A stretch of DNA of 64,000 nt, taken from NCBI RefSeq assembly GCF_000814845.2, contig NZ_CP010431.2, positions 2,170,001 through 2,234,000 of the forward strand. The letters run 5' to 3'. Positions 25,419 through 49,364 of the stretch are shown piece after piece. The notes below the pieces were generated by a model, which saw only the letters and a program-made list of their open reading frames with translations, was not told the DNA's origin and ran no database searches. This DNA is from Pandoraea sputorum. GTDB taxonomy: Bacteria > Pseudomonadota > Gammaproteobacteria > Burkholderiales > Burkholderiaceae. How positions within the stretch are numbered: position 1 is the stretch's first letter; every line of letters starts with the position of its first letter. The position numbers and the translations under genes were made by a program.

Positions 25419-25657
25419 CGCCGCATCCCTCACATCCCCCACACCGCTTTCATCTCCCGGTAGATTGAGCGACGAAGATTTCGGTCGAGCACACGCACGA
25501 TGGCAAGACGCAGATGCGGGTCGGCTAGAGGACTTCCTCAGCACGAGGCCACGCCTTTGGCGTAATCTTCAAAGCGACTCACGCGTGATGTGCCGCATTC
25601 CCGGCGACGACGTCGAGTCCTACGACAATCAATTCCGTATCTGGGAGGATGACAATC

Positions 25658-26140
25658 ATGAAGCAGATTTCGAACGCGACGTCGTGGCGACGTCTGGGTG
25701 CGCATGCGCTCGTCGGAGTAGCGTTGCTGGGCGGTGTCGCGAAGGCGGCGCTCGCTGCCGACGACACGTCGCCGGTCGGTGTGTGGAAGACGATCGACGA
25801 CAGCACGGGCAAGCCGAAAGCGCTCGTCACGATCTCGGAGAAGGACGGCGAGTACGTCGGCGTGATCACGAAGGGGCTTGGCGAGAACGACGATCCGGCG
25901 CGCGTGTGCGACAAGTGCACCGACGAGCGCAAGGGCCAGAAGATGCTCGGCATGCAGATCATCCGCGGCATCAAGAAGGACGGTGATTCATACGGCGGCG
26001 GTTACATCCTCGACCCGGAGAACGGCAAGGACTACAAGTGCAAGATGACCGTGACGGACGGCGGCAAAAAGCTCGACGTTCGTGGCTTCATCGGCATTTC
26101 GCTGATCGGCCGTACTCAGACGTGGATTCGCGAGCAGTAA
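25658..26140 (+). CDS. DUF2147 secreted protein, second copy
   Basis: This 160-residue protein is a paralogue of the previous gene: both contain SWRRL in the leader, PVGVW, CxxCTD, GMQIIRG and a C-terminal GRTQTWIREQ. It has a signal peptide ending near ALAAD. Two ATG codons lie in frame (25649 and 25658); GGGAGG at 25643-25648 touches the first and is nine bases from the second, so 25658 is the real start. A 239-nt gap and its own terminator suggest it can be expressed separately from the first copy. Confidence 0.85.
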   Translation: MKQISNATSWRRLGAHALVGVALLGGVAKAALAADDTSPVGVWKTIDDSTGKPKALVTISEKDGEYVGVITKGLGENDDPARVCDKCTDERKGQKMLGMQIIRGIKKDGDSYGGGYILDPENGKDYKCKMTVTDGGKKLDVRGFIGISLIGRTQTWIREQ

Positions 26141-26209: not shown

Positions 26210-26226
26210 CGTTAATGGTGCAGGCG

Positions 26227-27663
26227 TTAAGGCGTCGGCGTGGCAGTGCGCATGCGGCGCGCCACATTGGGCAGGTCGTCGAATAACGAATAGATCATCT
26301 GCAATGTCGAATGCCGGGCGATAGCGCCCCGGATGCCCGAGGTGCTGCGCGCTGCGGGCGTTTCGTGCGACGCATGGCGGCCGCGATGATGCGTGGTGGC
26401 GGCCTCTGGCGGCAAGGCAACCGGCAAGGCGATGCGCGCGCCGATGGGGCGCGGGACCATGATTCGCGCGATCCACGACACCGCGTGCCCAATGAGCGGC
26501 ATGTGCGCCGCGAAATTGATACTGTTTTTCAACATCTCCTGAATCACCGAAAGTAGTTCTCCATCGACGTAATAAGACTTCACACGCGACCAGGCGGGAA
26601 CGGCGGCATGCCGAGCGACCGTCTTGTTATGAAGCCCGGCCGGGTCGAAAGTCACCGCAGTCGAATGTCTTACCACGGACGTTTGCGCCGATGCCAGTCC
26701 ACCTCCCAACGAATGACCTGTGAACACGAGCTGCCGCGGTGGGTAGCAGAGCGCCAGCGATTTGGCCCAGTCGATGGCCTCTTCGTACTGCCTGGAGCGT
26801 AACCCCAACGCCTGTCGGAAATTGTGTGTCCAGTCGACGAGGGCGCGTGCGGTAATGCCCATCTCTGTGCCCCGGTCCGCCGCGAGATAGCGCTCGCATA
26901 GCGTGTCCTCATACAGCGCACCGAAGAAGCCCGATTGCTTCGGTCCGTTGTCGTCATGCACGCTGATGCGACGTACGCGTGTCGGCAAAATCTGTGGGAC
27001 TGAGTGATCGAAATAGACGTCGTGATTCACTAAGGCGGCCGTGATGTCGTTGCGTTGTTCGATGATCGACGCGGGGAGGTACGCTCCGTCTTTTGCTGCG
27101 ATCAGCGTATCGAGTTCGTCGATGCGTTGCGCGACGGTGACGAGCTTCGCTGTCCGACACGCGGAATCGTGAGCGGCGCTGTCGCCGACGAGCGGCTGCA
27201 TTTGCGCGAACACGTTGTCGTAGGCCACCGATTCCAAGCAGCCGCAAGGGCGCGATGCCGAGTCGATGTCCTCAGCTGCTTTGCATGCGTGCGATCGCGC
27301 GCCGGACGCCCGTGCCTCCTGGACGGCTTCCCGCCAAGTCTGCACCAGCACACGCACACGCTCGGCCAGCAGATCGCTGGTCGTTTCACTCGTGCGGCGG
27401 GGACGTCTGATTTCTGCGCGTTCAAGCGTACTGGCCCGTTGCAGTGAGCGTCGCCGCTCGGCATCGAACGCGCGACGTTCCGTGGCAAAGTCGACCCATT
27501 GTGAAGGTGTGTCGGAAGCTACGTCGTGGTGAGATGCCGCTAGCGATGTAGTGCCTTTGGACGCGTCGGGTGGTTCGCTGCTGGTGCGTGTGTTCCGAGT
27601 GGCGAGCGTGGTGAGCGCGGCGGGGAAACGAGTAGGGCTTAAAGCGCCGGTCTGGATATGCAT
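26227..27663 (-). CDS. class-3 lipase-like alpha/beta hydrolase, possible secreted effector
   Basis: The 478-residue protein carries the nucleophile elbow FTGHSLGGGLASAQ with Ser318, in the position expected for class-3 lipases and phospholipases; FDPAGLHN about 25 residues later may hold the acidic residue. Residues 1 to about 130 are polar, rich in Ser, Thr, Arg and Ala, with no signal peptide or membrane helix at the N-terminus. Such an N-terminus is common in type III or type VI secretion substrates, but no secretion genes lie here and that role is only a hypothesis. A hydrophobic segment near residue 400 (AVSWIARIMVP) may contact membrane. No Shine-Dalgarno precedes the ATG, so the start is uncertain. 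Confidence 0.7.
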   Translation of the reverse strand: MHIQTGALSPTRFPAALTTLATRNTRTSSEPPDASKGTTSLAASHHDVASDTPSQWVDFATERRAFDAERRRSLQRASTLERAEIRRPRRTSETTSDLLAERVRVLVQTWREAVQEARASGARSHACKAAEDIDSASRPCGCLESVAYDNVFAQMQPLVGDSAAHDSACRTAKLVTVAQRIDELDTLIAAKDGAYLPASIIEQRNDITAALVNHDVYFDHSVPQILPTRVRRISVHDDNGPKQSGFFGALYEDTLCERYLAADRGTEMGITARALVDWTHNFRQALGLRSRQYEEAIDWAKSLALCYPPRQLVFTGHSLGGGLASAQTSVVRHSTAVTFDPAGLHNKTVARHAAVPAWSRVKSYYVDGELLSVIQEMLKNSINFAAHMPLIGHAVSWIARIMVPRPIGARIALPVALPPEAATTHHRGRHASHETPAARSTSGIRGAIARHSTLQMIYSLFDDLPNVARRMRTATPTP

Positions 27664-27818
27664 AGGGGGTTGGGAAACGGCTTGAAAGGCGAGCGATTCT
27701 GCGCGACGCCGTTGCCCCCGGAAATCAAGAATGGCTCATTTGAAAGTCGTCACTGCGCGTTTCATGAACATGCGAACGATCGGTTGCCGACAACGACGCG
27801 TTCGACCTCAGATACGAC

Positions 27819-27854: not shown

Positions 27855-27947
27855 GCCGTCCTGCACCGTCGTCAGGGCCTGTACCCTGCGAACGGCTCCC
27901 CCTCGCGATCTTCCGGCGGGATCGATGTCCCGTCGATCCCGTCGTCT

Positions 27948-29246
27948 TTACTTGCTGCCCAGTCCCCCGAGCAAACCGGTCACCGGAGCGAGCAGACCAC
28001 CTGCGCCGCCGGTGCTCCCCGATGCGCCGCCGGCAATCGATGTCAGCGGTGAGGTCACCGAACTGAGCAACGTCGTGACGGGGGCGAGCGGATTACTTGC
28101 ACCGCTACCGCCCGCGCCGGTCGCACTTGTCACGCTGCCGAGCAGACCCGTGACAGGACTGAGCGGATTGCTGCCGGATGCGCTGCCACCTGCCACGCCG
28201 CCAAGCAGTCCCGTGAGCGAACCGAGCGGGTTAGCGGATGAACCTGATGCGCCACCCAGCCCACCCAACAATCCGGTGAGGGCGCCGAGCGGATTGTTGC
28301 CGCCGGCGGAGGTCGGTGTCACCGTCGTATTACCGACGTTCGCCAGCACGTTACCCAGCGCGTTTGCGCTGCTGCCGTTGGTACTGCCGGAGAGCAGACC
28401 GCCTGCGCTCGCGACCGTATTGCCCAGGGCCATTAGCGGATTGCCGAGACTCGCGACGACGGCGTTGGGCGCGGCTGCTTTGACCTGTGCGCCCGTCGAA
28501 TTCAATGCGCCGCCGAGCGTGCCGAGCAAACCTGCAACGGGTGTACCGAGGCCGCTGGCACCGCCTACGGTTTGCGTCGTCGTGACGAGCGTGTTCGTAA
28601 TCGGTGTGATGGCGGACGAGAGCGCCGAGGTTGCCTGAACGACTTGCGGGCTCGTGAGCGTCTGAGAGAGGGCCTGGCCGCCGGTGACGACGCCCTGGCC
28701 GACGGTAGTGACCGCCTGGCCCAGCACGCCCGTCAGCGAGCTGACAGGGGTGTTGGCGAGCGGTCCGCTGTTGCCGATGCCGGCCACGCCGCTACCGAGC
28801 GACTTGGTCGCGTTGCCGAGGTCCGAGACCACGCCACCGGTGCTCGCGAGTGTGGTGCCGACCGGATTCGCGCCGGACTTGCCGAGTTGACCGAGACCGT
28901 CGCCGACACCTTTGCCGAGATCGGAGACGGCGGTGCCCGTCTGCGAGATCGCCCCGCCGACGCCTTGCGTGACCTGCGGCGACACGCCGGGAATCGTGGT
29001 GCCCGACACCTGATCGCCGAGCGCGCTCACCACCGAGCCGACAGAACTCACGACACCGTTGCTGCTCGTGGTGGGGTTCGTCGGATTGACCGGGTTGGTT
29101 GGATTCGTCGGGTTATTGGGGTTCGTGGGGTTGGTCGGCGTGTTGGCCGTCGCGCCGCTGCCACCGCCCGAGCTGGAGCATCCGGTAATACCGACTACAC
29201 CCGCCACAAGTGCCGCGAACAACGTGGGACGCAGAATCTTCGACAT
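27948..29246 (-). CDS. Gly/Ser/Thr-rich repetitive lipoprotein, paralogue 1
   Basis: This 432-residue protein begins with a lipoprotein signal peptide (lipobox GITGC, then SSSGGGSG) and an Asn-Pro-Thr repeat linker. The body is Gly/Ser/Thr/Val/Leu-rich with shared blocks VVSALGDQV, TVGGASGLGTPVAGLLGTLG and repeated NPLAPVTTLL or NPLGSLTGLLGG units towards the C-terminus. Automatic annotation may call such proteins collagen-like, but there is no Gly-X-Y periodicity. Two paralogues lie upstream in the same direction with a MarR gene between. Likely an outer-membrane-anchored surface or matrix protein; this is inference. AAGGAG precedes the ATG. Confidence 0.8.
   Translation of the reverse strand: MSKILRPTLFAALVAGVVGITGCSSSGGGSGATANTPTNPTNPNNPTNPTNPVNPTNPTTSSNGVVSSVGSVVSALGDQVSGTTIPGVSPQVTQGVGGAISQTGTAVSDLGKGVGDGLGQLGKSGANPVGTTLASTGGVVSDLGNATKSLGSGVAGIGNSGPLANTPVSSLTGVLGQAVTTVGQGVVTGGQALSQTLTSPQVVQATSALSSAITPITNTLVTTTQTVGGASGLGTPVAGLLGTLGGALNSTGAQVKAAAPNAVVASLGNPLMALGNTVASAGGLLSGSTNGSSANALGNVLANVGNTTVTPTSAGGNNPLGALTGLLGGLGGASGSSANPLGSLTGLLGGVAGGSASGSNPLSPVTGLLGSVTSATGAGGSGASNPLAPVTTLLSSVTSPLTSIAGGASGSTGGAGGLLAPVTGLLGGLGSK
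29078..29150 (-). repeat. 9-bp-period repeat encoding Asn-Pro-Thr tract
   Basis: Degenerate nine-bp units encode NPTNPTNP-type repeats that link the lipid-anchored cysteine of paralogue 1 to its body. Length could vary between strains. Confidence 0.6.
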
Positions 29247-29349
29247 GACGTATCTCCTTTCGGTACGGCGCAGTCCGCTTCGATCTGCGTCGACGGGGGG
29301 GGCGGTCTTAGCGTTCGTGCGAACGCCATCCGCTCATCCGTTATTGGAC

Positions 29350-30093
29350 TTACGACTTCGATGCGTTGCCGCGTCCGTTCGATACCAGACCGGCGATGTC
29401 CTGGTCGGCTTCGAAGCGCAGACGGAAGGTCTCGCTCTTGAGGGTGCGAATGCTCTGCACCAGGAAGTCGTGGATCGCAGCGAGTTCGCTGTGGTCGTAC
29501 GCCGCGCTCACCGCGGTGAGTTCACGCGAGACGGACGACAGGAATTGTTCGATCTGCGCGCACTTTTCTTCGATGGGGTGAATCATCACCATGCGACGGT
29601 CGTGCGGATTCTTCTCGCGCTCGACAAAGCCTGCCCGCTCCAGTCGGTCGATAACGGTGGTGATACCGCCGGAGCTCACGCCCATGAGTTCGGCGAGCTG
29701 TCCTGCGGTGATCGATTCGAGTTCGAGAATCAGATCGAGCGCGTTCAGATCGGTGACGTTCAGGCCGAGTTGTTCGGCAAGGGCTGCGTGGTAGAGCGCC
29801 GTGTACACGGCCAGCCGGCGTCCGAGTGAGCGGACGATACCGGCGACGAGATCGTTGCGGTTCGTGTGTCGATCGCTCATGGTGCTGTTCGCTCCGTTCG
29901 TTGCATGCGTTCCATTGGAGCCGTGAGGCGAAGCGGTGCCGGACTCGGTACCGTATGTGTTGTGCGTTTGCGGGCCGGCATAGTGACTGCCGGAGTTTCC
30001 TGTGTCGCGCATCGCCAGAGGTTCTGCGCCTTGCGGGGCGGATTCGCCATGACCGCGCATCAGAACGCCGGTATCGGAGAGAAAGCGGGCCAT
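29350..30093 (-). CDS. MarR-family transcriptional regulator with low-complexity N-terminus
   Basis: The C-terminal 165 residues form a MarR winged-helix dimer: LNALDLILELESITAGQLAE, then recognition-helix region SSGGITTVIDRLERAGFVER and wing EKNPHDRRMVMIHP. The first 71 residues are low complexity, rich in Gly, Asn, Thr, Ser and His. Two starts are possible: ATG 30093 with AAGGAA five to six bases upstream, or ATG 29880 (MSDRHTNRN) with GGAG eleven bases upstream. The longer form has the better ribosome binding site. It sits between two lipoprotein paralogues in the same direction, so it probably controls this cluster; MarR proteins usually repress and release DNA upon ligand binding. Confidence 0.82.
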   Translation of the reverse strand: MARFLSDTGVLMRGHGESAPQGAEPLAMRDTGNSGSHYAGPQTHNTYGTESGTASPHGSNGTHATNGANSTMSDRHTNRNDLVAGIVRSLGRRLAVYTALYHAALAEQLGLNVTDLNALDLILELESITAGQLAELMGVSSGGITTVIDRLERAGFVEREKNPHDRRMVMIHPIEEKCAQIEQFLSSVSRELTAVSAAYDHSELAAIHDFLVQSIRTLKSETFRLRFEADQDIAGLVSNGRGNASKS

Positions 30094-30192
30094 GGCATTT
30101 CCTTATCGTTTGTTGTTGGTTGTGACGTGGCCGGCGCTACGGCTGCTGAACGTCTGTGCGCGCCGTGCCACGTCCTGAAGCGAGTGATGCAA

Positions 30193-31389
30193 TTACTTGC
30201 CGACGCTGGCGACGCTGCCCAGGAGGTTCGTCACCGGCTGGATCAGCACCAGCAGACCGCCCGTGCCACCCGTGCTGCCACCAGCGCTGCTCGTCACGCC
30301 CGAGAGCAGGCTCGTGACGGGGGCGAGCGGGTTGCTGCTGCCGCTGCTGCCACCGGACGCTGCGCCGCTCAAGCCACCGAGCAGGCTCGTGACAGGCGCC
30401 AGCGGGCTGCTGCTGCCACTCGTGCCACCCAGACCGCCGAGGCCGCCCAGCAGGCCGGTAACGGAGCCGAGCGGGTTGCCCGCGCTGCCGCCGCCGCCGG
30501 CGGCCGTGTTGCCGAGTCCGCCGAGCAGCGAGCCGAACGCGTTCGTCGAGCCATTCGACGTGGGACCGTTGACTACGCCGCCGAGCGTCGAGACCGTTTT
30601 CCCGGTGGCGTCCACCGTGTTGCCCAGTGCGACCACCACGCCGTTGTTCGACGTGCCGCCGATCGTCGTGCCGACCTTGCTGACGGCACCGCCCACGGTG
30701 GTGATCAGGTTGGACACCGGACCGCCGAGGCCTGTCGTGGTGCCTACGGTGCGCGTGGTGTCGGAGACCATGTTGGTGATCTGGTTGATCGGCTGTGACA
30801 GCGTCGAGGTCACTTGCCCGACCGGACCGGTCGTCGCGAGGGTCTGACCGAGGATCGCGCCGCCAGCAATGCCGCCCTGGCCGACCGACTGGACGATGCC
30901 GCCGACGCCGCTCACCAGCGTGTCGACCGGGGTGCCTTGCAGCGGATTGCCCTTGGTAATGCCCTGGATGCCGCTGCCGAGCGATACACCTGCGTGGCCG
31001 AGATCCGTCACGGCCGGGGCGACGCCAGCGAGCGTTACGCCCACGGTGTTCCCATTCGTGCCGGTCTGGCCGAGGCCGCTGCTGACGGCATTGCCGAGAT
31101 CGGTGACGGCGTTACCCGTGCTCTTGAGTGCGCCGCCCATGCCTTGCGACGTTTGCGACGACACCAGCGGCAGTTGCGTGCTGGCGACCTGATCGCCCAG
31201 TGCGCTGACCACGTTACCGGCCGAGCTGACCACACCGCCTGCACCGGCGGCCGTCGTGCCGACCGCGTTCGGGGTGCCGGTCGTGCCGGCCGAGGTTGCG
31301 CCGCTGCCGCCGCCGCTGGAGCAACCCGTGAGGGCGATGGCTGCGATGGCGGCCGAAGCCAGCAGAGTGCGTTGAAGTGCGTTGCTCAT
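30193..31389 (-). CDS. Gly/Ser/Thr-rich repetitive lipoprotein, paralogue 2
   Basis: This 398-residue protein has a signal peptide with lipobox ALTGC followed by SSGGGSG. It shares with its paralogues the blocks VVSALGDQV, LPLVSSQTSQG, TVGTTTGLGGPVSNLITTVG and C-terminal SSPLAPVTSLLGGL / SNPLAPVTSLLSGV units. The C-terminus reads QPVTNLLGSVASVGK. No enzymatic motif or Cys besides the lipidated one was seen. AAGGGAG precedes the ATG. It is followed, 99 nt downstream, by the MarR gene. Confidence 0.8.
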   Translation of the reverse strand: MSNALQRTLLASAAIAAIALTGCSSGGGSGATSAGTTGTPNAVGTTAAGAGGVVSSAGNVVSALGDQVASTQLPLVSSQTSQGMGGALKSTGNAVTDLGNAVSSGLGQTGTNGNTVGVTLAGVAPAVTDLGHAGVSLGSGIQGITKGNPLQGTPVDTLVSGVGGIVQSVGQGGIAGGAILGQTLATTGPVGQVTSTLSQPINQITNMVSDTTRTVGTTTGLGGPVSNLITTVGGAVSKVGTTIGGTSNNGVVVALGNTVDATGKTVSTLGGVVNGPTSNGSTNAFGSLLGGLGNTAAGGGGSAGNPLGSVTGLLGGLGGLGGTSGSSSPLAPVTSLLGGLSGAASGGSSGSSNPLAPVTSLLSGVTSSAGGSTGGTGGLLVLIQPVTNLLGSVASVGK

Positions 31390-31709
31390 GATGTCTATCT
31401 CCCTTGATCGTTCTGAATATCGGCTGGCGGGGGACCGCTCAATGACGCCGTGTGATGCCGCGAATTGCCTCTGGTGCTGCTATTTCCATTTGAGAAACCG
31501 TGGCCGCTCGCTGTGATGCCGTTGTGTGCGTGCGGCGTGTGGGGTGAGCCGGATCCGGCCCGGCCCGGTCCGGTGCGTGAGCATCGGTACGAGGGCCGGA
31601 TCGCGGCGGTCACAAGCTGGCGGTGGAATCGCGTGGGTCATGATCGGTCTGCCTCTCGTGAAGTCTGTGCGTTGAGCGATGTGTCGACGTTGCCGATCCA
31701 TGTGCTCGA
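31390..31709 (-). other. gap between lipoprotein paralogues with weak small reading frames
   Basis: This 320-nt interval could encode a 53-codon frame from ATG 31641 (MTHAIPPPACDRR, with GAGAGG nine bases upstream) to 31480, or a GTG-started 72-codon frame (31613-31395) rich in His, Asn, Gly and Ser. The second resembles in composition the N-terminal extension of the neighbouring MarR protein. Neither has a recognised domain and neither is confidently a gene. Confidence 0.3.
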
Positions 31710-33395
31710 TTACTTCTTGCCGCCGAGCAGACCGCCGAGCAGACCGGTCACCGGAGCGAGGGGGCCGCCGCTGTTGCTGCCGCCCGAAGTCGCACCACCG
31801 ACCGCACCTGTCACCGAGCCGAGCAGCGTCGTCACCGGGGCGAGCACACCGCCCGAAGCCGAGCCGCCAGCACCGGCCGAAGCACCGCCGGTTCCGGCAG
31901 AGCCGCCTGCGCCAGCCGTGAGCGTGCCGCCGAGGCCGCCCGTCAGACCGGAGACGAGGTTGGTGACCGGGGCGAGCGGGTTGCTGCCCGAAGCACCGCC
32001 CGTTGCGCCGCCGAGTGCGCCCGTCAGGCCGGAGACGAGGTTGGTGACCGGGGCGAGCGGGTTGCTGCCCGAAGCACCGCCCGTTGCGCCGCCGAGTGCG
32101 CCCGTCAGGCCGGAGACGAGGTTGGTGACCGGGGCGAGCGGGTTGTTACCCGAAGCACCGCCCGTTGCGCCGCCGAGTGCGCCCGTCAGGCCGGAGACGA
32201 GGTTGGTGACCGGGGCGAGCGGGTTGTTACCCGAAGCACCACCCGTCGCACCGCCGAGCGTGCCCGTGAGACCCGAGAGCAAGCCCGTGACCGGAGCCAG
32301 CGGGCCGGAGCCCGTGCCCGAGCCGACACCGACTACACCCGACAGGCCACCGAGCGCAGCGCTCAGCGGAGCGAGCGGGTTGGTGCTCGTCGGTGTGCCG
32401 TGGACGAGGCCACCCAGGCTGGCCACCGTGGTGCCCACACCGGCGACCACGCCGCCGAGGTCCTTCGCGACCGGGTTGTTGATCTGACCGCCGAGCTTGG
32501 TGCCCACACCGGCCAGACCACCGCCAACCGTGGCGAGCAGACCGGCGACCGGCGTACCGAGACCTGTGGCGTTACCGACCGTTTGCGTCGTGTTGGTCAC
32601 TACCGTCGTGATCGGGGTGATGGTCTTCGACAGGCCCGACGTCAGTTGCTGTACCGGTGCGCTGTTGACCGTGGTCGTCAACCCGTTGCCGAGTGCGACA
32701 CCGGCGTCGCCGACCGAGGTCACCACGCCGCCGAGCAGCCCGGTGACACCGTTCACCAGCGCCACGTTCTTGAGCGGACCGGTTTGACCCAGGCCTGCCA
32801 CAGCGCTACCCACTTGCTGACCGGCCTGACCGAGGTTGGTCACGGCACCCGTGACGCCGGTGAGCGTGGGGTTCAGTGCGTCGTTGCTCGAACCGAGCTT
32901 GCCGAGGCCGTTCGTGAGGCCGGTGCCGATCGACTGCACGGCGTCGCCCGTCTTCACGACAGCGCCAGACAGTCCGCCTTGCGTTTGCGAGCTGACGATC
33001 GGCAGGTTCGTGCTGCCAAGGGTCGTGCCCAGATCGCTGACCGTCTTGCCGACTTGCGTCACGACACCCGTGCTGGCAGTGGCAGCCACGACGCCGATTG
33101 GGTTGGTGGAGGCTCCCGTGCCGCCGTTGCCATTCCCGTTACCGTTGCCGTTGCCATTCCCGTTGCCATTGCCGTTACCGCTGCCATTCCCGTTGCCCGA
33201 GCCGTTACCCGAACCGTCCGGCACGGTGCCCGCGCCCGAGCCGCCACCGCTGCCGGTGCCAGCCGAGGTGCCGCTGCCGCCACCGTCGCCGAGCGAGCCA
33301 CTGGTGCCGCCCGAACCGGAGCTGGCGCAGCCGGTCATCGTGACGACGGCGAGAAGAACGGCAGAAGCGAGAAGGTTGCGTTGGATGTTTTTCAT
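31710..33395 (-). CDS. Gly/Ser/Thr-rich repetitive lipoprotein, paralogue 3, with tandem repeats
   Basis: The 561-residue protein is the largest paralogue. A lipobox (VTMTGC) is followed by a Gly/Ser linker and an alternating Gly-Asn tract (residues about 62-92). The body has VGKTVSDLG, LPIVSSQTQGG, ITPITTVVTNTTQTVG and NATGLGTPVAGLLATVGG, which align with the other two. The C-terminal third contains four copies of a 27-residue unit of the type NPLAPVTNLVSGLTGALGG, followed by degenerate units. It is presumably exported and lipid-anchored; surface exposure and function are inferred. A small gene lies 27 nt upstream in the same direction. Confidence 0.8.
   Translation of the reverse strand: MKNIQRNLLASAVLLAVVTMTGCASSGSGGTSGSLGDGGGSGTSAGTGSGGGSGAGTVPDGSGNGSGNGNGSGNGNGNGNGNGNGNGNGNGGTGASTNPIGVVAATASTGVVTQVGKTVSDLGTTLGSTNLPIVSSQTQGGLSGAVVKTGDAVQSIGTGLTNGLGKLGSSNDALNPTLTGVTGAVTNLGQAGQQVGSAVAGLGQTGPLKNVALVNGVTGLLGGVVTSVGDAGVALGNGLTTTVNSAPVQQLTSGLSKTITPITTVVTNTTQTVGNATGLGTPVAGLLATVGGGLAGVGTKLGGQINNPVAKDLGGVVAGVGTTVASLGGLVHGTPTSTNPLAPLSAALGGLSGVVGVGSGTGSGPLAPVTGLLSGLTGTLGGATGGASGNNPLAPVTNLVSGLTGALGGATGGASGNNPLAPVTNLVSGLTGALGGATGGASGSNPLAPVTNLVSGLTGALGGATGGASGSNPLAPVTNLVSGLTGGLGGTLTAGAGGSAGTGGASAGAGGSASGGVLAPVTTLLGSVTGAVGGATSGGSNSGGPLAPVTGLLGGLLGGKK
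31945..32262 (-). repeat. four 81-bp tandem repeats inside lipoprotein 3
   Basis: The string GAGACGAGGTTGGTGACC recurs at 31951, 32032, 32113 and 32194, a strict 81-bp period (27 codons). Copies 1-2 share GTTGCTGCCC and copies 3-4 share GTTGTTACCC, which suggests stepwise duplication. The last unit is diverged at its end. Confidence 0.95.
33122..33212 (-). repeat. hexanucleotide repeat encoding Gly-Asn tract
   Basis: Units of CCGTTG, CCATTC, CCGTTA and CCATTG repeat with a six-bp period and encode alternating Gly and Asn or Ser after the lipid anchor of paralogue 3. Confidence 0.85.
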
Positions 33396-33422
33396 GATGG
33401 TGTCCTCTGGTCTTTGTCGTAT

Positions 33423-33740
33423 TCAGGCGAGCACGTTTTGTGCTGCCAGTCGGTTGTTCATGCGTTGTGCGATGAGTGCGAACAGGAGCGCTGTTACGGT
33501 TGCGCTATCGGGGCCCGTCATCGCATGGGCCGAATTCGTGTTGCTGCTGCGAGCGTTCGCCATGTCGGTCGGTGTGGCGGTGGCGCGTGCGCCACCGCCT
33601 TCTTCACCGCCCCTCCCTGGGCTTGCGCCTCTACGACCGGTGTCGGCCACAGCCTCGCGCTGCTTCGCCGTGATGCGTTGACGCTCTGCCGAGATGGCTG
33701 CCGCGCCGTGCATCGTTTGTTTGGTATTGCCAACGATCAT
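33423..33740 (-). CDS. small hypothetical protein at the head of the lipoprotein cluster
   Basis: This 105-codon frame starts at ATG 33740 with GAGGG about six bases upstream and ends 27 nt before lipoprotein 3, so the two are probably cotranscribed. The middle is polar and Gly/Arg-rich (GRRGASPGRGGEEGGG), and the C-terminal 35 residues contain an amphipathic or hydrophobic helix (VTALLFALIAQRMNNRL). There is no signal peptide and no domain was recognised. It is a plausible small gene; coding status rests on the ribosome binding site and position only. Confidence 0.45.
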   Translation of the reverse strand: MIVGNTKQTMHGAAAISAERQRITAKQREAVADTGRRGASPGRGGEEGGGARATATPTDMANARSSNTNSAHAMTGPDSATVTALLFALIAQRMNNRLAAQNVLA

Positions 33741-34723
33741 GGTGTCCCTCGTGATCTTTAGCGTTGCGATGCAGGGATATCTGCAAGACGTGTGCCAACC
33801 ACAGACCAGGGGTTCGAATAAGCCTTCTAGTTTTTCCGGCAATCGGCTGAAAAGCCTGTATTTATTTGCGTTTCGGAAAACAAGAATCTTTTGGATCGAG
33901 ATATCTCGACGGCGCTGGGGGAGTAGGAAGTCAGGGTTAACGCCATCGGGAAATGGCGAATAAACGGGGAAACGACGTTCCCGTTACGGGGGGCGTTACG
34001 GGGAACGTAACGTAACGAAAGGGTTACGAAAGGCGTGTGGAAAGGCGTAGCGCAAACGAATGAAACGCAGCCGTGGAATTAAGGAGTAAAAGCAAATGCA
34101 TCAGAACACTGCGGAAGATATTCGGGTGCACCGGCGATTCGGGTAATGCCTGATCGAACCTAATAACTAGAAGGCCTTACTAATAGCTAAAGGCGCGATG
34201 CTGTGGGGCGGAAGGGAAGTGATAGGCGGGCGCTAAGTGCTGCGTGGCGTGGGCGTGTTCGCGTGTCGAAACGCGGCATGCCTACTTCGGAAAAGATGAA
34301 TAGTTATTAAATGCGTGCTGAAACCGCTGTTGAGGGTATTTCGCTAATGTGTGTGGCGTCGCACCAATCATGGTTTTCCCTCGCGCACGTTGTATTGCCT
34401 AGTTTTGGAGTATTGTTTGATCAACCTGAGTAACGTTTTCTTACATCCTTAGGGGTGATTGGAAGCAAGACTCTAGTTTTTGTGATTTAGTTTAAATTAG
34501 CATCAGAAAAAAATAGTACGCAGGTGCAAATGCTGTGCCAACAGCCAAGGAAATATTGGCGTACAACGTAAAAGAGGTTCGCGAGCCTTGCAGCACAACG
34601 AACCCGAGGCCGAAGTCAAGAGTTGATCTGCGATATGGCGGGATTCCGTCGTCAGACCTTAGGGTCGATGGCAGCCCTGCTGTGTGCCAACGGGCGCCTG
34701 GCGCCTTTTTGAGGGAGGGTGAT
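33741..34723. other. long non-coding divergent region between lipoprotein cluster and Tad island
   Basis: This 983-nt region has lower GC than its surroundings and no credible gene. It holds a cluster of CGTTACG elements at 33982-34029 and an AT-rich stretch at 34380-34520. A sigma-54 site (GG-N10-GC) was looked for by eye because a sigma-54 activator ends the Tad island; none was found. It presumably contains promoters of both divergent units. Confidence 0.6.
33982..34029. promoter_or_regulatory. cluster of CGTTACG / CGTAACG elements
   Basis: CGTTACG occurs at 33982 and 33994, its inverse CGTAACG at 34006 and 34011, and GTTACGA at 34023. The first three start exactly 12 bp apart, and 33994-34012 forms an inverted repeat with a five-nt centre (CGTTACG, five bases, CGTAACG). 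This is a candidate operator about 240-290 bp upstream of the lipoprotein cluster and about 700 bp before flp. Confidence 0.45.
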
Positions 34724-34909
34724 ATGAAACTCGGAAATCGTTTTCGTCTGTTTGCGCGCGACGAGCGCGGTGTAACGGCGCTTGAGTACGGCATCCTCGC
34801 CGCTATCGTCGCGGTGATCATCGGTGGCACCGTCTATACCAATCTGGGCACGACATTCGCCTCCGTGTTTTCGAAGATCCAGTCGGCGGTCACGGCAGCA
34901 GGCGCATAA
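34724..34909 (+). CDS. flp: Flp-type pilin, first copy
   Basis: The 61-residue prepilin has a short basic leader ending in RDERG, cleaved before VTALEYG by the Tad prepilin peptidase; the Glu at mature position 5 and Tyr at 6 are the family's hallmark. A hydrophobic helix (ILAAIVAVIIGGTVYTNLG) and a short tail follow. GAGGGAGGG lies directly upstream, which fixes the start; an upstream in-frame extension to 34535 is not real. It is the first gene of the Tad island. Confidence 0.93.
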   Translation: MKLGNRFRLFARDERGVTALEYGILAAIVAVIIGGTVYTNLGTTFASVFSKIQSAVTAAGA

Positions 34910-35087
34910 GATTCACGTAGTTCGTATCGGAACAACGGCGCTTTGGCGTCACAGAAGAAGTCGGCACAGGTTCCTCGCGTCTGCGTGTTGTAGCGAGGGA
35001 TCGTGCGGACCATAAGGGGAAGGGCGCGGGTTCACAGACAAGCGCCATCCGGGGTAGTGGGATGCTGTATTCGCGAGGAAGCGAATC

Positions 35088-35288
35088 ATGCGAGCAAATC
35101 GAGTTGGGGCAAGCCGCCGACAGCACAGACTGTCGCGGCAAAAGGGTGTGACCGCGCTGGAGTACGGCATTCTCGCGGCTATCGTGGCGGTCATCATCGG
35201 CGGCACGGTCTATACGAACATGAGCAGTGTGCTCTCGAGCGCATTCAGCACGGTGACGTCGGCGGCCACCTCGGCTGCATCGCATTAA
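35088..35288 (+). CDS. Flp-type pilin, second copy
   Basis: The 66-residue prepilin is identical to the first copy through GVTALEYGILAAIVAVIIGG and two further TVYTN residues, but has a different basic leader (MRANRVGASRRQHRLSRQK) and a Ser/Thr/Ala-rich tail. GAGGAAG precedes the ATG. Two pilins of this kind could be major and minor subunits or be used under different conditions. Confidence 0.92.
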   Translation: MRANRVGASRRQHRLSRQKGVTALEYGILAAIVAVIIGGTVYTNMSSVLSSAFSTVTSAATSAASH

Positions 35289-35359
35289 GACAGCATCGAC
35301 GCTGATATGTATAGGCGGTGTGATAGGCGGTTTTAGCGGAACCGGATGCGAGACCTCCT

Positions 35360-35839
35360 GTGCTGACATTGCTTTGGCTGTTATGTGTGCCGATCGTACT
35401 GACCGACCTGATCGCACGGCGTATCCCGAATATCTGGCTATTGTGTGTTGCTGCGCCCGCGCTGGTCTGGATTGCGTGGCAAGTGTGGCACACCGGACCT
35501 CGCGTGCTGTGGGTTCACGGACTGGGCGCACTTCTTGGATTGATCGTACTGCTACCTTTTTGGTGGCGAGGCGTGATGGCTGCAGGCGACGTCAAGCTGT
35601 TTGCGGTGATCGGGTTGGTAGCGGGTTATCCCGCGCTGTTGCCGGTGTGGTGTCTGGCCAGCGTGGCGACCGGAGTGCATGCGTTGGTGGTGCTTGCCGG
35701 TCGTATGAAATGGCTCGCACGATGGCGCGAACGTTGGATGGCGTCGAGCGTGTGGCAACGAATTCTGCAGTGGCGGGCGGGGCGCGTGGGTTTGCCTTAC
35801 GGGGCGTATCTGGCTGCCGCAGCGCTCGTGGTGCGATGA
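35360..35839 (+). CDS. cpaA: Tad prepilin peptidase (CpaA/TadV)
   Basis: The 159-residue A24-family aspartic peptidase cleaves Flp and TadE-type prepilins at the inner membrane. Catalytic aspartates are in LTDLIARRIPN and AAGDVKLFAVIGL; several hydrophobic helices surround them. The start is GTG at 35360; no ATG in frame precedes the first helix. It follows the pilin genes directly, the usual Tad order. Confidence 0.9.
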   Translation: MLTLLWLLCVPIVLTDLIARRIPNIWLLCVAAPALVWIAWQVWHTGPRVLWVHGLGALLGLIVLLPFWWRGVMAAGDVKLFAVIGLVAGYPALLPVWCLASVATGVHALVVLAGRMKWLARWRERWMASSVWQRILQWRAGRVGLPYGAYLAAAALVVR

Positions 35840-36049
35840 AGACAGTGAGCGGATGAAGGTGTGAGGGCACCGGCCTTAGGCAGTAGCAAGATCGCTGACC
35901 ATCGCAAAGTGGGGATGCATCGGAGGTCACGAGTGTTGGCGAAGTCAGCACCGTAATAATGGGAGGCGCGGGCGACGCCGCGCAAATTTGCAGGTTCATG
36001 CGTCGCCAGACACGGTCGAAAAGCGCCGTGCGCGACGGGGGGTATCGTC

Positions 36050-36535: not shown

Positions 36536-36692
36536 GCGATGGTCTGGACGGGCAGCAAACACGCGAAACAATTACGAAGCTAGCAACAGGTAGGACCACG
36601 AGTGAGGTAACAGGAAGTCGCATCGGATTGATATGCCGCCGGTACGCCGGCGTCCCGCAAGTTGTGACTGAACGGCCGACAGGCCCCAAGCC

Positions 36693-37724
36693 ATGAACAA
36701 AGCCACCAAGATTCTTGCTGCTGTGCTGGTTATCGTCGGTGTCGCGCTGGCGCTCTTCGCATTGCGTCTGGGAACGAACAATGCCCCTGCGCCGAACGCC
36801 GCGCCCTCGGCGGTCACCCAAACGCTGACACAGCGCTTCCCGGCCGTGGTGGCGGCTAAGGCGCTCGCCCCGGGCAAGCCGATTACAGCGGACGACATCA
36901 AGATCGCGCAGTTCGATAGCCAAACGCCCAATGCCTTTGCCAACCCGGCCGATGTCGTGGGACGGGTGCCCCTCGTTGCACTCGCAGCGGGAGTGCCGGT
37001 CACGCAAAACACGCTGGCACGCGGCCTTGCGATGCAGCTCGCTCCCGGGGAGCGCGCCGTCGCCCTGCCCGTGACCGAGACGGTCGGCGTGAGCAACCGC
37101 ATTCGCCCCGGCGATTTCGTGGACGTCTTCTTTACGATGAAGACGAATCAACCCGCAGGCAGCCCGACGGTCGGCCTGGTAGACGACACGCAAGCGCGCT
37201 TGCTGGCGTCGCGTGTGCGGGTACTGACCTACGGCAATGCGTCGCTCGACGACATCACGCCGCCGCCCGCCGCGCCCAGCGTCGCGTCCACGGTCGCGGC
37301 AGCGACGGCCAGCGCGCCGCCACCTCAGCAAGCGGCTGCGCCGCAACCGCCGCCGATGCCCGCGACCTCGGCGGTCGTGGCTGTCCCCATCGAAGACGTC
37401 AACCGGCTCGTGCTCGGCGCACAGCAGGGCAAGATCACGCTCGCACTGCGCAACCCGGCTGACGACACGAAGCCCGATACCTCGCTGTTCCCGCCGACAC
37501 CGCCCGTACTCGTGAGCAAGGCCGGTCTCGCGGGCGACAACAAGGCTGCACTGAACTCGCCGGAGAACCTGGCCTATGCCGGTATCGCCACGACGGGACT
37601 GGCCGGCGAGCCGCCGCGACGCACGGCGGCGGCACCGGCACCGCGAGCGCCGGGGGGCGGCGGCGGTGGTGGCGGCACGGTCGAAGTCGTGCGCGGCGCC
37701 GAGCGATCTACCGCGTCCTTCTGA
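36693..37724 (+). CDS. cpaB: Flp pilus assembly protein CpaB (RcpC)
   Basis: The 343-residue protein starts with one membrane helix (ILAAVLVIVGVALALFALRL), followed by a SAF-type domain (VVAAKALAPGKPITADDIKI) and AIALPVTE-like RAVALPVTETVGVSNRIRPG, the CpaB/RcpC core. A Pro/Ala-rich insert and a Gly-rich tail (PGGGGGGGG) follow. CpaB is a periplasmic partner of the secretin. It lies immediately upstream of cpaC. Confidence 0.9.
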   Translation: MNKATKILAAVLVIVGVALALFALRLGTNNAPAPNAAPSAVTQTLTQRFPAVVAAKALAPGKPITADDIKIAQFDSQTPNAFANPADVVGRVPLVALAAGVPVTQNTLARGLAMQLAPGERAVALPVTETVGVSNRIRPGDFVDVFFTMKTNQPAGSPTVGLVDDTQARLLASRVRVLTYGNASLDDITPPPAAPSVASTVAAATASAPPPQQAAAPQPPPMPATSAVVAVPIEDVNRLVLGAQQGKITLALRNPADDTKPDTSLFPPTPPVLVSKAGLAGDNKAALNSPENLAYAGIATTGLAGEPPRRTAAAPAPRAPGGGGGGGGTVEVVRGAERSTASF

Positions 37725-37784
37725 GCCGAACGCATCGAAGCGATTTGAATTGAGTGAACTGAATTGAAGTGACGAGCAGATCCA

Positions 37785-39242
37785 GTGATGTTCGGGCGCG
37801 GGGGGCAACCAGTGCGACGAACACCACTTAACCGACACAGTGACCGATACAGCCACGCCATGATCAGAAGCCAGGTTCGCACTGCCAGACGAGAAACCAG
37901 ACGTGTCACGGGAATGCTGTTTTGTTTTGCTGCGCTGCTCGCATGTGGCGCGACGGTCGCGGTCCGGATGGCCGACGCTGCCGACACCGCACCTGGCGCA
38001 GGGGCTCGTTCGCTGACGCTCGCGGTGCACGAGCAGCGCGAATTACCGGTCTCGGGCACGCTGGAGCGCGTGGCCGTCGCTGATCCGGAGATCGCGGACA
38101 TCGTCGTGCTCAAGGGTTCCGGCGGTCGTCGCGGCTCGGTGTTGGTCGTCGGCAAGAAGGCTGGTACGACACAGGTATCGACGTGGCCGCGCGGTGGTGA
38201 GGCCACCCGTTGGGAGGTTCACGTGCAGGGCAACCTGCAAAGTGCATTGGGTGACACCGGTACGGCCAGCGTCGACGCGCGCGGCGGTGCGGCCGTCATC
38301 AAGGGACATACGAATACGCTGATCGAACACAGCGGCCTGCAAGCGGCGGCGGTCGATGCGTCGGGCAAGGGGGGGTGGTGGTGGACCGTTCGACGGTCGG
38401 GGACACCGGCGTCGTGCAGGTCGACGTCAAGATCGTCGAAGTGAACCGCAACATTCTGAATCAGCTGGGCGTGGACTTCACTGCGCAGCACAACTCGCCA
38501 TCGGGCGGATTCGGCGTGATTTCGACACTGGGGACGGCCGCGTTCGGCAGCGGCGGCACCTCGACGTCGAACTTCGGATCGTTCTTCGGCTCGATTACGC
38601 GAGGCGCATTCAACCTGTCGGCGAAGATCAATCTGCTGCAGTCGAACGGTTTGGGGCGCGTACTTGCCGCACCGTCGCTCGTCGCGTTGTCGGGCCAGAG
38701 CGCGAGCTTCCTCGCCGGTGGCGAGTTGCCGGTGCCGCAGTCGGGGGATTGGGAACGACGACCATTGTCTACAAGTCGTTCGGTGTGGGCCTGACGGTGA
38801 CGCCGACGATTCTGTCGCCGAACCGGATTGCACTGAAGGTCGCGCCGGAGGCGTCCGACCTCGACTACACGAATGCCGTAGTGATTGCGTCGACGCAGAT
38901 TCCCGCGATCACGACACGGCGCGCCGATACGACGGTCGAGCTGGGCGACGGCGAGAGTTTCATCATCGGCGGCCTGATTTCGCGCACGACGACCGCTGCC
39001 GTCGACAAAGTGCCGCTGTTGGGCGATTTGCCGCTCATCGGCTCGTTTTTCCGGAATCTGAAGTACAACAGTATCGAGAAGGAACTGGTCATCATCGTCA
39101 CACCTCACCTGGTCAAGCCGGTTTCCAGAGATGTGACGCTGCCGCTGCCGGGGACACCCGGGAGAAGCGGCCGGGGCCGGTGTGGGGCGAGTATTTGATG
39201 GGCGTGGCAAGCGACAGCGAACTGCCGGGCTTCTCGAAGTGA
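37785..39242 (+). pseudogene. cpaC: Tad secretin CpaC (RcpA), reading frame interrupted by three -1 shifts
   Basis: The secretin forms the outer-membrane channel of the Tad pilus. The N-domain (RSLTLAVHEQRELPVSGTLE, VAVADPEIADIVVL) is in the first frame, the early secretin domain (VVQVDVKIVEVNRNILNQLG) in a second, the core (VELGDGESFIIGGLISR, VPLLGDLPLIGSFFR) in a third, and the end (KRPGPVWGEYLMGVASDSEL) again in the first. Each change equals one missing base, and each lies in a G run: 38369-38375 (seven G), 38743-38747 (five G) and 39160-39162 (three G). Adding one G at each restores a single 486-residue CpaC. It may be true decay or homopolymer sequencing error. The start is uncertain; ATG 37860 is an alternative. 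Confidence 0.88.
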
Positions 39243-39345
39243 CCTAAGGGGCATTAGCGCCGAATCGAAGCAGGTTCGTCGGCGGCGTAGCGGTCTCGGG
39301 CGAAGTATCGGCGAAAGCCGGGTTGGGGTAGTAAGGAGTGCACAA

Positions 39346-40698: not shown

Positions 40699-40699
40699 T

Positions 40700-42990: not shown

Positions 42991-43009
42991 GCGCGAAGGA
43001 CCCGCAGCC

Positions 43010-45138: not shown

Positions 45139-45172
45139 GAACGAACGCAGCAACATCAGGGGAGACGTGAAG

Positions 45173-45742: not shown

Positions 45743-45748
45743 TGTCTC

Positions 45749-47854: not shown

Positions 47855-47957
47855 CGAAGCTATCGGAACATGCCGCGACGCCTGAACCGGAGCCCGGGCG
47901 GCGCACCGAATTTCACCAGGACGAACGCCGGGGGCGTTCGTCAACGAGCAAATCAGC

Positions 47958-49364
47958 ATGAAAAGCAAGCCAGTACGTGAAGACCTCGATGTCTACGTGT
48001 GGGAAGGCAAGTCGGACATTGCCGACCGCGTGTCGCATTGCCTCGCAAGCTTCGATATGGAAGTGATTCGTGCGGACGGTATCGATCTGTCGCGCGAGCG
48101 CACGCGTGCGCGACCGTCCATTGCTGTGGTCAGCGTGTCGGTGATCGAAGGCGCGTCGACCAACGCGAACGAATGGCAACTCGGTCATGGCATGCCGGTG
48201 ATCTGGGTGGCCACGACGCCGCGCGAGAACGACCGGAGTGTCTTTCCGCCCGAGTACAGCAACATCCTCACGCTCGACTTTTCCGGCGCGGAACTGCGCA
48301 CGCTCATCTTCAAACTCTCCGGTGCGATTGCGGAAGCCGACCGTGCGCCCGTACCGTCCGACCCGCTCGTCGCCCAGTCGAGTGCAATGCTCGGCCTGCT
48401 CGCCGAAGTGGACGCCTTCGCCGACTGCGATTCGAACGTGCTGATTCACGGCGAAACCGGCGTGGGCAAGGAGCGGATTGCGCGTCTGCTGCACGACAAG
48501 CAGAGCCACTACGGACAGGGACCGTTCGTTGCCGTGAACTGCGGTGCGATTCCGGATGGCCTGTTCGAGTCGCACTTCTTCGGGCACGCCAAAGGGGCGT
48601 TCACCGGCGCGTTGTACTCGCACAAGGGGTACTTCGAGCAAGCCAACGACGGCACGCTGTTTCTCGACGAAATCGGCGATCTGCCGCTGTATCAGCAGGT
48701 CAAGTTGCTGCGGGTGCTGGAGGATAGTGCGGTGACGCGTCTGGGCTCGGCGCAGCCGGTGAAGCTCGACTTCCGGCTGGTGGCGGCGACGAACAAGAAC
48801 CTGAAGTCGATGGTGCGCGACGAATTGTTCCGCGCCGACTTGTTCTATCGTCTCGCCGTGATCGAGTTGCACATCCCCAGTCTCGAAGAGCGCGGACCGG
48901 TCGACAAGCTGGCCGTCTTCACGGCATATCTCGGCAAGGTGGTCGGCGATAGCGAAGTCGGCGCGCAAGTGCCGCCGTGGCTGCGCGAACTGGTCGAAGG
49001 CGGCGTGTTTCCCGGCAACGTCCGCGAAATGCGCAATATCGCCGAGCGTGTCGGCATCATCTACCGGCAACTCGGGGGCTGGGACGAGCGGCGAATCCGT
49101 CCGATCTTCGATGCATTGTCGATGGGCGCCACCGGGGCGGTGCCGCGCGCCGACGATCCGGCACGCAGTGGGGCACTGACCGACCGCGCACGCTGGGACG
49201 CCACCGAGCGCGCACGCATCGTTGCTGCGCTCGACGCCAACGGATGGCGGCGTCAGGACACGGCGAACGCGCTGGGTATCAGCCGCAAGGTGCTGTGGGA
49301 GAAGATGCGCAAATATCAGATCGTCGGAAACGACTCGGAACTGGCGAGCGAATACGAGGGATAA
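47958..49364 (+). CDS. sigma-54-dependent transcriptional activator
   Basis: The 468-residue protein has an N-terminal receiver-like domain (about residues 1-130) without an obvious phosphorylatable Asp, an AAA+ domain with Walker A GETGVGKE near residue 165, the sigma-54-contacting loop KGAFTGAL near residue 213, Walker [11 protein letters not shown], the arginine-finger region and a Fis-type helix-turn-helix at the C-terminus ([19 protein letters not shown]). This arrangement resembles VpsR/FleQ-like regulators. Its position at the end of the Tad island suggests it activates Tad or surface genes. The final codons lie next to a 12-bp duplication (ATACGAGGGATA at 49352 and 49371). Confidence 0.9.

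What the first reader, a model, noticed from the sequence alone, without database searches (positions are those of the whole stretch)
27948..33740. Three paralogous Gly/Ser/Thr-rich lipoproteins with an embedded MarR regulator next to the Tad island
Three lipidated proteins (432, 398 and 561 residues) share an anchor, a low-complexity linker (NPT, GS or GN repeats), a central block with GLGTPVAGLL and a C-terminal array of NPLAPVT units. They lie in one direction with a MarR gene between them. They have no collagen Gly-X-Y pattern, so an automatic collagen-like label would be misleading. They may be a variable, repeat-built surface coat or pilus-associated matrix protein family.
Basis: partly seen in the sequence, partly recalled or inferred. 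Interest (0 to 1): 0.75.

Follow-up and report, generated by a model that had tools for sequence, protein, structure and literature searches.

The report
Tad-linked Collagen_mid lipoproteins with sigma-54 control
Three related surface-type lipoproteins beside a pilus gene cluster in Pandoraea belong to a known but misnamed 'bacterial collagen' family that is predicted to be helical rather than collagen, and they appear to be switched on by a regulator encoded at the other end of the same pilus cluster.

Summary
Three same-strand lipoprotein genes (561, 398, 432 aa; here colA, colB, colC) with a MarR gene between colB and colC lie beside a Tad/Flp locus in a Pandoraea genome. All belong to Pfam PF15984 'Collagen_mid', described in Burkholderia as Bcc-CLPs; BCAL1523/1524 lie beside flp there, and deleting BCAL1524 lowers autoaggregation (PMC10303873). 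For these three the collagen label misleads: G-X-Y runs do not exceed shuffles and AlphaFold predicts helices. The NPLAPVT unit and the GLGTPVAGLL block look like versions of one helical unit. In a 300-genome order sample all 9 genomes over the family cut-off have a copy within 5 kb of cpaB. New here: a sigma-54 -24/-12-like site precedes colA in 27 of 27 Pandoraea loci and 11 of 22 non-Pandoraea genes (0.4 expected); the enhancer-binding protein ending the Tad locus, a GtrR homologue, occurs in those 9 genomes and one more. Best reading: GtrR/RpoN-controlled lipoproteins for cell aggregation alongside Flp pili. A 66-nt leader block is constrained at nucleotide level. Surface exposure, MarR's role and the adhesion mechanism are inferred.

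The parts
31710..33395 (-). colA: 561-aa lipoprotein, Collagen_mid residues 131-333, C-terminal array of about 7 PLAPVT-type helical units
30193..31389 (-). colB: 398-aa lipoprotein, Collagen_mid residues 73-275, about 3 C-terminal units
29350..30093 (-). MarR-family regulator between colB and colC (the listed start may be too far upstream)
27948..29246 (-). colC: 432-aa lipoprotein, Collagen_mid residues 85-287, about 4 C-terminal units
33782..33797 (-). sigma-54 -24/-12-like site (TGGCAC..TTGC) 386 bp upstream of the colA ATG; present in 27 of 27 Pandoraea colA loci examined
33423..33740 (-). 105-codon leader ORF starting 41 bp after the site; an ORF of 95-106 codons starts 38-48 bp after the site in 27 of 27 loci (in one, L112, in another frame at first)
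33570..33635 (-). 66-nt leader block conserved at nucleotide level, with an invariant 10-bp hairpin; one copy in the genome
34525..34540 (-). second exact sigma-54-like site in the colA-flp intergenic region, exact in 8 of 25 Pandoraea loci
34724..34909 (+). Flp pilin gene, divergent from colA, first gene of the Tad locus; no sigma-54-like site of its own
36693..37724 (+). CpaB, used as the Tad marker in the co-occurrence counts
37785..39198 (+). Tad secretin region, not in a single frame in this genome
39346..47854 (+). rest of the Tad locus: TadZ_N-like (just under its cut-off), T2SSE ATPase, two T2SSF proteins, TPR protein, TadE/G-like protein
47958..49364 (+). sigma-54 enhancer-binding protein, GtrR homologue, at the far end of the Tad locus

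Best explanation
This is a Tad-linked operon of outer-membrane-type lipoproteins of the Collagen_mid (PF15984) family. The Tad locus ends with a sigma-54 enhancer-binding protein homologous to GtrR. It most likely activates RpoN polymerase at the conserved -24/-12 site upstream of colA and so turns on the lipoprotein operon, while flp, the first Tad gene, uses another kind of promoter. The products are anchored by lipid, spaced by a disordered linker, and carry an all-helical middle domain followed by a variable number of short helices joined by Gly/Ser linkers. They promote cell-cell aggregation under the conditions in which Flp pili are made. In Pandoraea a MarR regulator and a long leader with a nucleotide-constrained block add further control. 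Shown here by computation: family membership, lipobox, Tad and GtrR-homologue linkage, conserved site, predicted helical fold, likeness of the repeat unit to parts of the middle domain. Shown by others for one homologue: presence in vesicles, aggregation. Inferred: one transcript, activation by GtrR and RpoN, sorting to the outer membrane (Ser or Ala after the lipid cysteine; rule recalled), surface exposure, homotypic contact, MarR function.
For: PF15984 hits. Tad adjacency in 9 of 9 genomes over the cut-off in the order sample, nearest match 1.9-4.8 kb from cpaB, and in 27 of 29 genus genomes. In G014 most of colC, and colB, colA and the whole Tad locus, are missing through separate gaps against the window, and no Collagen_mid copy is left. 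Sigma-54-like site: 27 of 27 Pandoraea colA loci; 11 of 22 non-Pandoraea genes at score 10 or more of 12 within 200 bp, 0.42 expected from random pieces; 16 of 309 control ORF upstream regions. GtrR-type activator at E 1e-95 in 10 of 300 genomes: the 9 Collagen_mid genomes plus G124 (Fisher p 2e-16, not corrected for relatedness). No homologue of the activator in the two f55 loci, whose genes also lack a site. The G315 activator has 463 aa, the published length of GtrR, and a 3' end identical to the published gtrR primer. BCAL1524: vesicles and autoaggregation; flp genes and BCAL1520, 1523 and 1524 induced together on contact with host membrane vesicles.
Against: 11 of 22 non-Pandoraea genes lack a site at score 10 or more (4 of them reach 9), among them L133, whose locus does have the activator. 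With one mismatch allowed the pattern is no commoner in the window than chance (12 against 8.4), so the case rests on position and conservation. Among 16 Collagen_mid genomes (own included) 3 carry the gene away from Tad and 1 has no CpaB over the cut-off. Several Burkholderiaceae have extra copies elsewhere. G124 has the activator without PF15984. No passage read here reports RpoN or GtrR control of these genes; two RpoN papers gave no match for Flp or collagen in their main text. Whether Pandoraea encodes RpfR was not tested. Vesicle presence does not exclude the periplasmic face.
Confidence: 0.58

Rival explanations
1. The proteins are periplasmic parts or helpers of the Tad machine, for instance secretin pilotins or scaffolds, and do not reach the surface.
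For: Tad neighbourhood in 9 of 9 genomes over the cut-off in the order sample; lipobox; loss together with Tad in G014.
Against: 66 of 75 genomes with CpaB over the cut-off in the order sample lack the family; copies occur away from Tad; long low-complexity linkers and variable repeats are unusual for assembly factors (general knowledge); the BCAL1524 deletion has an aggregation phenotype.
Confidence: 0.17
2. Collagen-like adhesins that form triple helices, as the family name and automatic annotation say.
For: Name of PF15984; high Gly+Ser+Thr content (0.46-0.49); PMC10303873 describes BCAL1524 in these terms; some relatives have long GTS triplet runs (BCAM0695: 83 triplets) and one B. gladioli gene is listed with both PF01391 and PF15984 (PMC12724388, passage).
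Against: In the three window proteins G-X-Y runs are no longer than in shuffles and proline is 4-6%; no Pfam collagen-repeat hit; all-helical prediction of the middle domain in two models. PMC10224339 also doubts the label.
Confidence: 0.03
3. RpoN and GtrR control the proteins, but their role is envelope protection or remodelling under quorum or c-di-GMP control, and the Tad neighbourhood reflects shared regulation rather than shared function.
For: Sites also upstream of copies away from Tad (L144, L148, L149); GtrR is described as a global regulator; few charged residues (11-18 per protein).
Against: Order-wide Tad adjacency; loss with Tad in G014, where most of the activator gene remains.
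Confidence: 0.15
4. The conserved 66-nt leader block is only a coding constraint on a real leader protein.
For: An ORF starts 38-48 bp after the site in 27 of 27 loci, with a G-rich ribosome-binding-like stretch before the ATG.
Against: Third codon positions are as conserved as first and second inside the block (0.959 against 0.967 and 0.965) and less so outside it (0.771 against 0.820 and 0.823). Over the ORF, codon differences are mostly amino-acid changing (727 against 227; this includes the shifted part of L112 and the divergent L118 and L124). The hairpin pairs are invariant, so covariation neither supports nor refutes RNA structure.
Confidence: 0.25

Closest known systems
Bcc-CLPs of Burkholderia cenocepacia (BCAL1523, BCAL1524, BCAL2397, BCAM0695, BCAM1598), Pfam PF15984
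   Same: Same Pfam family, lipoproteins, low-complexity regions; BCAL1524 is divergent from flp (BCAL1525), as colA is here.
   Different: Two copies at the Tad locus instead of three. In the Burkholderia-like locus G315 (L131): no MarR homologue found, site 78 bp from the ATG instead of 386, no leader block match.
Bacterial collagen-like proteins with G-X-Y triple helices
   Same: Glycine-rich, adhesion function claimed.
   Different: No G-X-Y array beyond chance in the three window proteins and a predicted helical middle domain.
RpfR-GtrR (BDSF / c-di-GMP) regulation in Burkholderia cenocepacia
   Same: The activator at the Tad end is a GtrR homologue: the G315 gene has 463 aa and an identical primer site at its 3' end; the window protein is 60-62% identical to it.
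   Different: Control of Collagen_mid genes by GtrR and RpoN is predicted here from sequence; RpfR was not looked for in Pandoraea.
RpoN-dependent PEP-CTERM gene in floc formation (PMC9850573, title and start of abstract in a search listing only)
   Same: RpoN control of an aggregation protein, as the title states.
   Different: Different protein family by name; not compared by sequence.

Membership tests
PF15984 Collagen_mid / Bcc-CLP family | Match to the Collagen_mid profile over its curated cut-off | tested here: met
   142-162 bits against 31.1 for all three, profile positions 1-198
PF15984 Collagen_mid / Bcc-CLP family | Lipoprotein signal | tested here: met
   Lipobox in all three; 103 of 110 extracted homologous ORFs passed the filter; of the 7 others, 2 lack their N-terminus, 4 show a lipobox on reading that the filter missed, 1 (L120) has none
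PF15984 Collagen_mid / Bcc-CLP family | Low-complexity repeat regions flanking the middle domain | tested here: met
   alignment of 44 of the 103 proteins
Collagen-like (triple-helical) proteins | Continuous G-X-Y triplets | tested here: not met
   6, 4 and 4 triplets; shuffled maxima 8, 9 and 9; tested on the three window proteins only
Collagen-like (triple-helical) proteins | Triple-helical structure | not testable with these tools
   Single-chain models are all-helical; no convincing solved relative (best E 0.004, a 58-residue viral protein)
GtrR (BCAL1536) orthologue | Sigma-54 interaction domain and Fis-type HTH | tested here: met
   PF00158 E 1.5e-63, PF02954 E 4.7e-12
GtrR (BCAL1536) orthologue | Position at the end of the Flp locus and sequence match to Burkholderia gtrR | tested here: met
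   9 of 9 non-Pandoraea Burkholderiales Tad loci fetched (L196-L204) carry it, 54-64% identity; the G315 gene fits the published gtrR length and 3' primer (0 of 20 mismatches); its 5' primer match (5 of 20) is no better than chance hits in other loci. BCAL1536 itself was not fetched
GtrR (BCAL1536) orthologue | Complex with RpfR, response to c-di-GMP and BDSF | not tested
   Described for B. cenocepacia; RpfR was not searched in this genome
Tad/Flp pilus locus | Flp pilin, prepilin peptidase, CpaB, secretin, ATPase, two T2SSF proteins, TadE/G | tested here: met
   the secretin is not in one frame in this genome
Known Rfam cis-regulatory RNA (leader block) | Match over the gathering score | tested here: not met
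   0 matches in 20000-50000; in 33380-34740 up to E 1 only one sub-threshold match, outside the leader

The most novel reading that the evidence does not exclude
The C-terminal PLAPVT units are tethered copies of helices of the middle bundle (matches at two main fixed places in the bundle; 73 of 102 domains, many from closely related species, above the shuffled 99th percentile). They could swap into the bundles of neighbouring lipoproteins on the same or another cell, a helical counterpart of donor-strand exchange. Adhesion would then be a homotypic velcro whose strength is set by unit number, and the whole system would be switched by BDSF and c-di-GMP through RpfR-GtrR and RpoN from inside the Tad locus.
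Probability: 0.1. Interest if true: 0.8.

Novelty: new variant of a known kind. Interest (0 to 1): 0.52.

Why it matters
The family has a misleading name and no established mechanism, yet one member affects aggregation and infection of insect larvae. The near one-to-one occurrence of a GtrR-type activator and these genes next to Tad, with a sigma-54-like site upstream of many of them, gives a directly testable circuit. It would tie a known c-di-GMP/quorum regulator, whose gene lies in the Flp locus, to a concrete surface product, and could help explain why Flp and lipoprotein genes are induced together on contact. The likeness of the repeat unit to parts of the middle domain gives a first structural idea of how the proteins might work.
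Full report
What is there. The window lies in a single-contig 5.74-Mb genome of the genus Pandoraea: the first named colA relatives are P. anapnoica, P. aquatica and P. commovens, 98, 91 and 87% identical in the best segment (records very near the window may be left out of that list), and the P. anapnoica contig has the same length as that of G001 of the genus search. Reading leftwards from the Tad locus the order is: sigma-54-like site (33782-33797), a 105-codon ORF (33423-33740), colA (31710-33395), colB (30193-31389), marR (29350-30093), colC (27948-29246), all on the minus strand. Rightwards from the same intergenic region runs the Tad locus with Flp pilin, prepilin peptidase, CpaB, secretin, TadZ-like protein, ATPase, two T2SSF proteins, TPR protein and TadE/G-like protein, followed by a sigma-54 enhancer-binding protein at 47958-49364.

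Family. All three lipoproteins match PF15984 'Bacterial collagen, middle region' end to end. The family was described for Burkholderia as Bcc-CLPs in PMC10224339 (outline with abstract, passages, most of section 3 and the figures-and-tables section seen). There BCAL1523 and BCAL1524 lie next to the flp operon on the other strand. PMC10303873 (passages) reports BCAL1524 in outer-membrane vesicles, reduced autoaggregation of the deletion (17.7% residual OD against 11.9%) and a role in Galleria infection. PMC7970998 (passages) reports joint induction of flp genes and BCAL1520, 1523 and 1524 on contact with host membrane vesicles; PMC2753556 (passages) names two operons, BCAL1524-1520 and BCAL1525-1537, with several genes lowered in a cepR mutant (BCAL1520 among them; BCAL1523 and 1524 are not in the table shown). 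So the proteins and their Tad neighbourhood are not new in kind.

Not collagen. Longest G-X-Y runs in the three proteins are 6, 4 and 4 triplets, within shuffles; proline is 4-6%. This does not hold for every relative: Bcc-CLPs can have many GTS triplets and one B. gladioli gene is listed with PF01391 as well. AlphaFold with 44 sequences gives seven long helices over residues 99-332 with block pLDDT of 70-96, then eight short helices of 12-16 residues, roughly one per PLAPVT unit, separated by low-confidence Gly/Ser linkers (whole model: mean pLDDT 66.4, pTM 0.48). The middle domain alone (42 sequences) is again all-helical, at lower confidence (mean pLDDT 73.8, pTM 0.60). Comparisons with solved structures gave only generic helical bundles and no convincing solved relative was found by sequence.

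One unit, two places. A position matrix from 281 distinct C-terminal units (consensus PLAPVTGLLGGLTGGLGG) was scanned over 102 middle domains. 73 of 102 score above the 99th percentile of shuffled domains; of these 24 start at alignment column 85-89, 47 at 155-159 and 2 near 195. Many domains come from close relatives, so the 73 are not independent. In Burkholderia-like proteins the first place reads almost like a C-terminal unit (PLAPVTGAVGGLVSQVGN in L131). Of the window's own proteins colB and colC exceed the threshold and colA falls just short. The simplest reading is that the C-terminal array grew from a helix of the bundle.

Paralogue history. A tree of 62 of the 102 middle domains puts colA, colB and colC of Pandoraea each on one side of one branch (support 100/94, 100/95, 100/98; rows outside the three groups not counted); colB and colC are sisters (99/98), and two Pandoraea (G024, G030) have a colA-like gene and one gene outside the colB-colC pair. 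29 of 32 genus genomes have the family, by my count of the rows 24 of them with three or more full matches and 5 with two. A MarR homologue was found in 30 of 32; by the coordinates it lies between colB and colC in 25 of 25 genomes with both on one contig. A MarR gene also directly follows a Collagen_mid gene in two loci of another family, f4 (L134, 33%; L135, 39% identity), and in G237 (L134) a further Collagen_mid match lies on its other side, the same order as in Pandoraea. No MarR homologue was found at E 1e-5 in the other non-Pandoraea loci searched (L128-L133, L136-L149 and L196-L206). Common descent of the two MarR arrangements was not tested.

Tad link. Order sample of 300 genomes: PF15984 over the cut-off in 9 (a tenth, G089, has only a weak match under it), CpaB over the cut-off in 75; all 9 are among the 75 and all 9 have a copy 1.9-4.8 kb from cpaB. 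In a phylum sample of 398 genomes 13 were over the cut-off and 5 more had weak matches under it: six already in the order sample, G634 (adjacent), two f55 genomes with adjacency (G598, G649), three f55 genomes with CpaB elsewhere (G386, G390, G471) and one without CpaB over the cut-off (G676). Altogether 12 of 16 genomes over the cut-off have adjacency, 15 of 16 have CpaB. Of the three Pandoraea genomes without the family, G018 has no CpaB match and a 1.2-Mb genome, G014 has lost this Tad locus but has another, and in G026 the contig ends just beyond this type of cpaB, so it is undecided. In G014 blastn against the window shows the flanks preserved with gaps at 26212-27809 (the lipase-like gene), 27909-29101 (most of colC) and 29776-47922 (start of marR, colB, colA, all Tad genes); the first 352 of 468 residues of the activator align at 93%.

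Sigma-54. Only three exact matches to TGGYRYRNNNNTTGCW lie in the 64-kb window, two of them in the colA-flp intergenic region. With up to one mismatch the count in the whole window (12) is not above chance (mean 8.4), so the case rests on position and conservation. In 31 Pandoraea loci and the window, 14 of 15 exact matches fall in intergenic regions between colA and flp. The best site before colA scores 9-11 of 12 in 27 of 27 loci, 355-395 bp from the ATG, and is aligned in the 25 loci whose flp was recognised. Of 22 non-Pandoraea genes 11 have a score of 10 or more within 200 bp upstream and 4 more have 9; 0.42 and 1.8 expected from random pieces at 10 or more and 9 or more. 16 of 309 control ORF upstream regions from the same loci, which still include the Collagen_mid genes, reach 10. 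The BCAL1524-like gene of G315 has 12 of 12 at 78 bp. Three of the 11 are copies away from Tad (L144, L148, L149). The Flp pilin genes opening the Tad locus, where recognised, have no such site.

Activator. The enhancer-binding protein at the end of the Tad locus has a homologue of 54-64% identity at the same place in 9 of 9 non-Pandoraea Burkholderiales loci fetched, and none in the two f55 loci, whose Collagen_mid genes also lack a site. At E 1e-95 it occurs in 10 of 300 order genomes: the 9 Collagen_mid genomes and G124 (at most five candidates scored per genome; Fisher p 2e-16 without correction for relatedness). In G124 a different, very long G/L-rich repeat protein lies about 10 kb upstream of cpaB. 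The B. cenocepacia gene that fits this place is BCAL1536, GtrR: the Flp operon is BCAL1525-1537; PMC5295037 (passage) lists BCAL1536 as a predicted RpoN enhancer-binding protein; PMC12838280 (passages) describes RpfR-GtrR as activated by BDSF and inhibited by c-di-GMP; PMC8174753 (passages) gives 463 aa and primers. The G315 gene has 463 aa and matches the 3' primer with 0 of 20 mismatches; its 5' primer match, 5 of 20, is no better than chance hits elsewhere.

Leader. In Pandoraea about 345 bp separate the leader start codon from the colA ATG (345 in the window). A 66-nt block (33570-33635) is nearly invariant in 22 loci, its third codon positions as conserved as the others, unlike the rest of the ORF, and contains an invariant 10-bp hairpin. 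It is unique in the genome (up to 3 mismatches over 23 bases) and was found only in Pandoraea among 249 genomes of the family. Since the pairs do not vary, structure is not proven; the constraint on the nucleotides is well supported.

Judgement. The family is known. What goes beyond print, as far as the searches named under Tried and rejected reach, is the sigma-54-like site, the GtrR-type activator as its near one-to-one companion, the shared helical unit, and the MarR and leader of Pandoraea.

Noticed in passing
37785-39198 +: The Tad secretin of this genome is spread over three reading frames (N-terminal domain, middle, Secretin domain), while relatives L196, L207, L208 and L209 have one frame of 464-490 codons. 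Either a real defect or a sequence error; not resolved and not mended.
   Followed up: partly
33570-33635 -: 66-nt leader block with nucleotide-level constraint and an invariant GC hairpin, no Rfam match, found only in Pandoraea; a candidate regulatory RNA or DNA element.
   Followed up: partly
34525-34540 -: A second exact sigma-54-like site pointing away from flp with no long ORF close behind it; exact in 8 of 25 Pandoraea loci.
   Followed up: partly
L233:222-2927 (G124): In the one order-sample genome with the GtrR-type activator but no Collagen_mid, a roughly 900-residue protein of G/L-rich repeats with no Pfam hit lies about 10 kb upstream of cpaB, followed by a lipobox ORF; a possible functional substitute.
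   Followed up: no
L127 (G014): Pandoraea genome with separate gaps against the window that removed the lipase-like gene, most of colC, and colB-colA-Tad while keeping a MarR remnant and much of the activator gene.
   Followed up: yes
L134 (G237): A MarR gene between Collagen_mid genes in another family, the same order as in Pandoraea.
   Followed up: partly
24945-25418 + and 25649-26140 +: Two tandem DUF2147 proteins near the cluster.
   Followed up: no
26227-27663 -: Lipase_3-like protein (E 2e-4, just under the Pfam cut-off) downstream of colC; missing in G014.
   Followed up: no
L120 (G025:C942): An extra, divergent Collagen_mid ORF in one Pandoraea with a plain signal-peptide-like start instead of a lipobox.
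   Followed up: no
35088-35288 +: A second Flp-like pilin directly after the first, also seen in many other Pandoraea loci.
   Followed up: no
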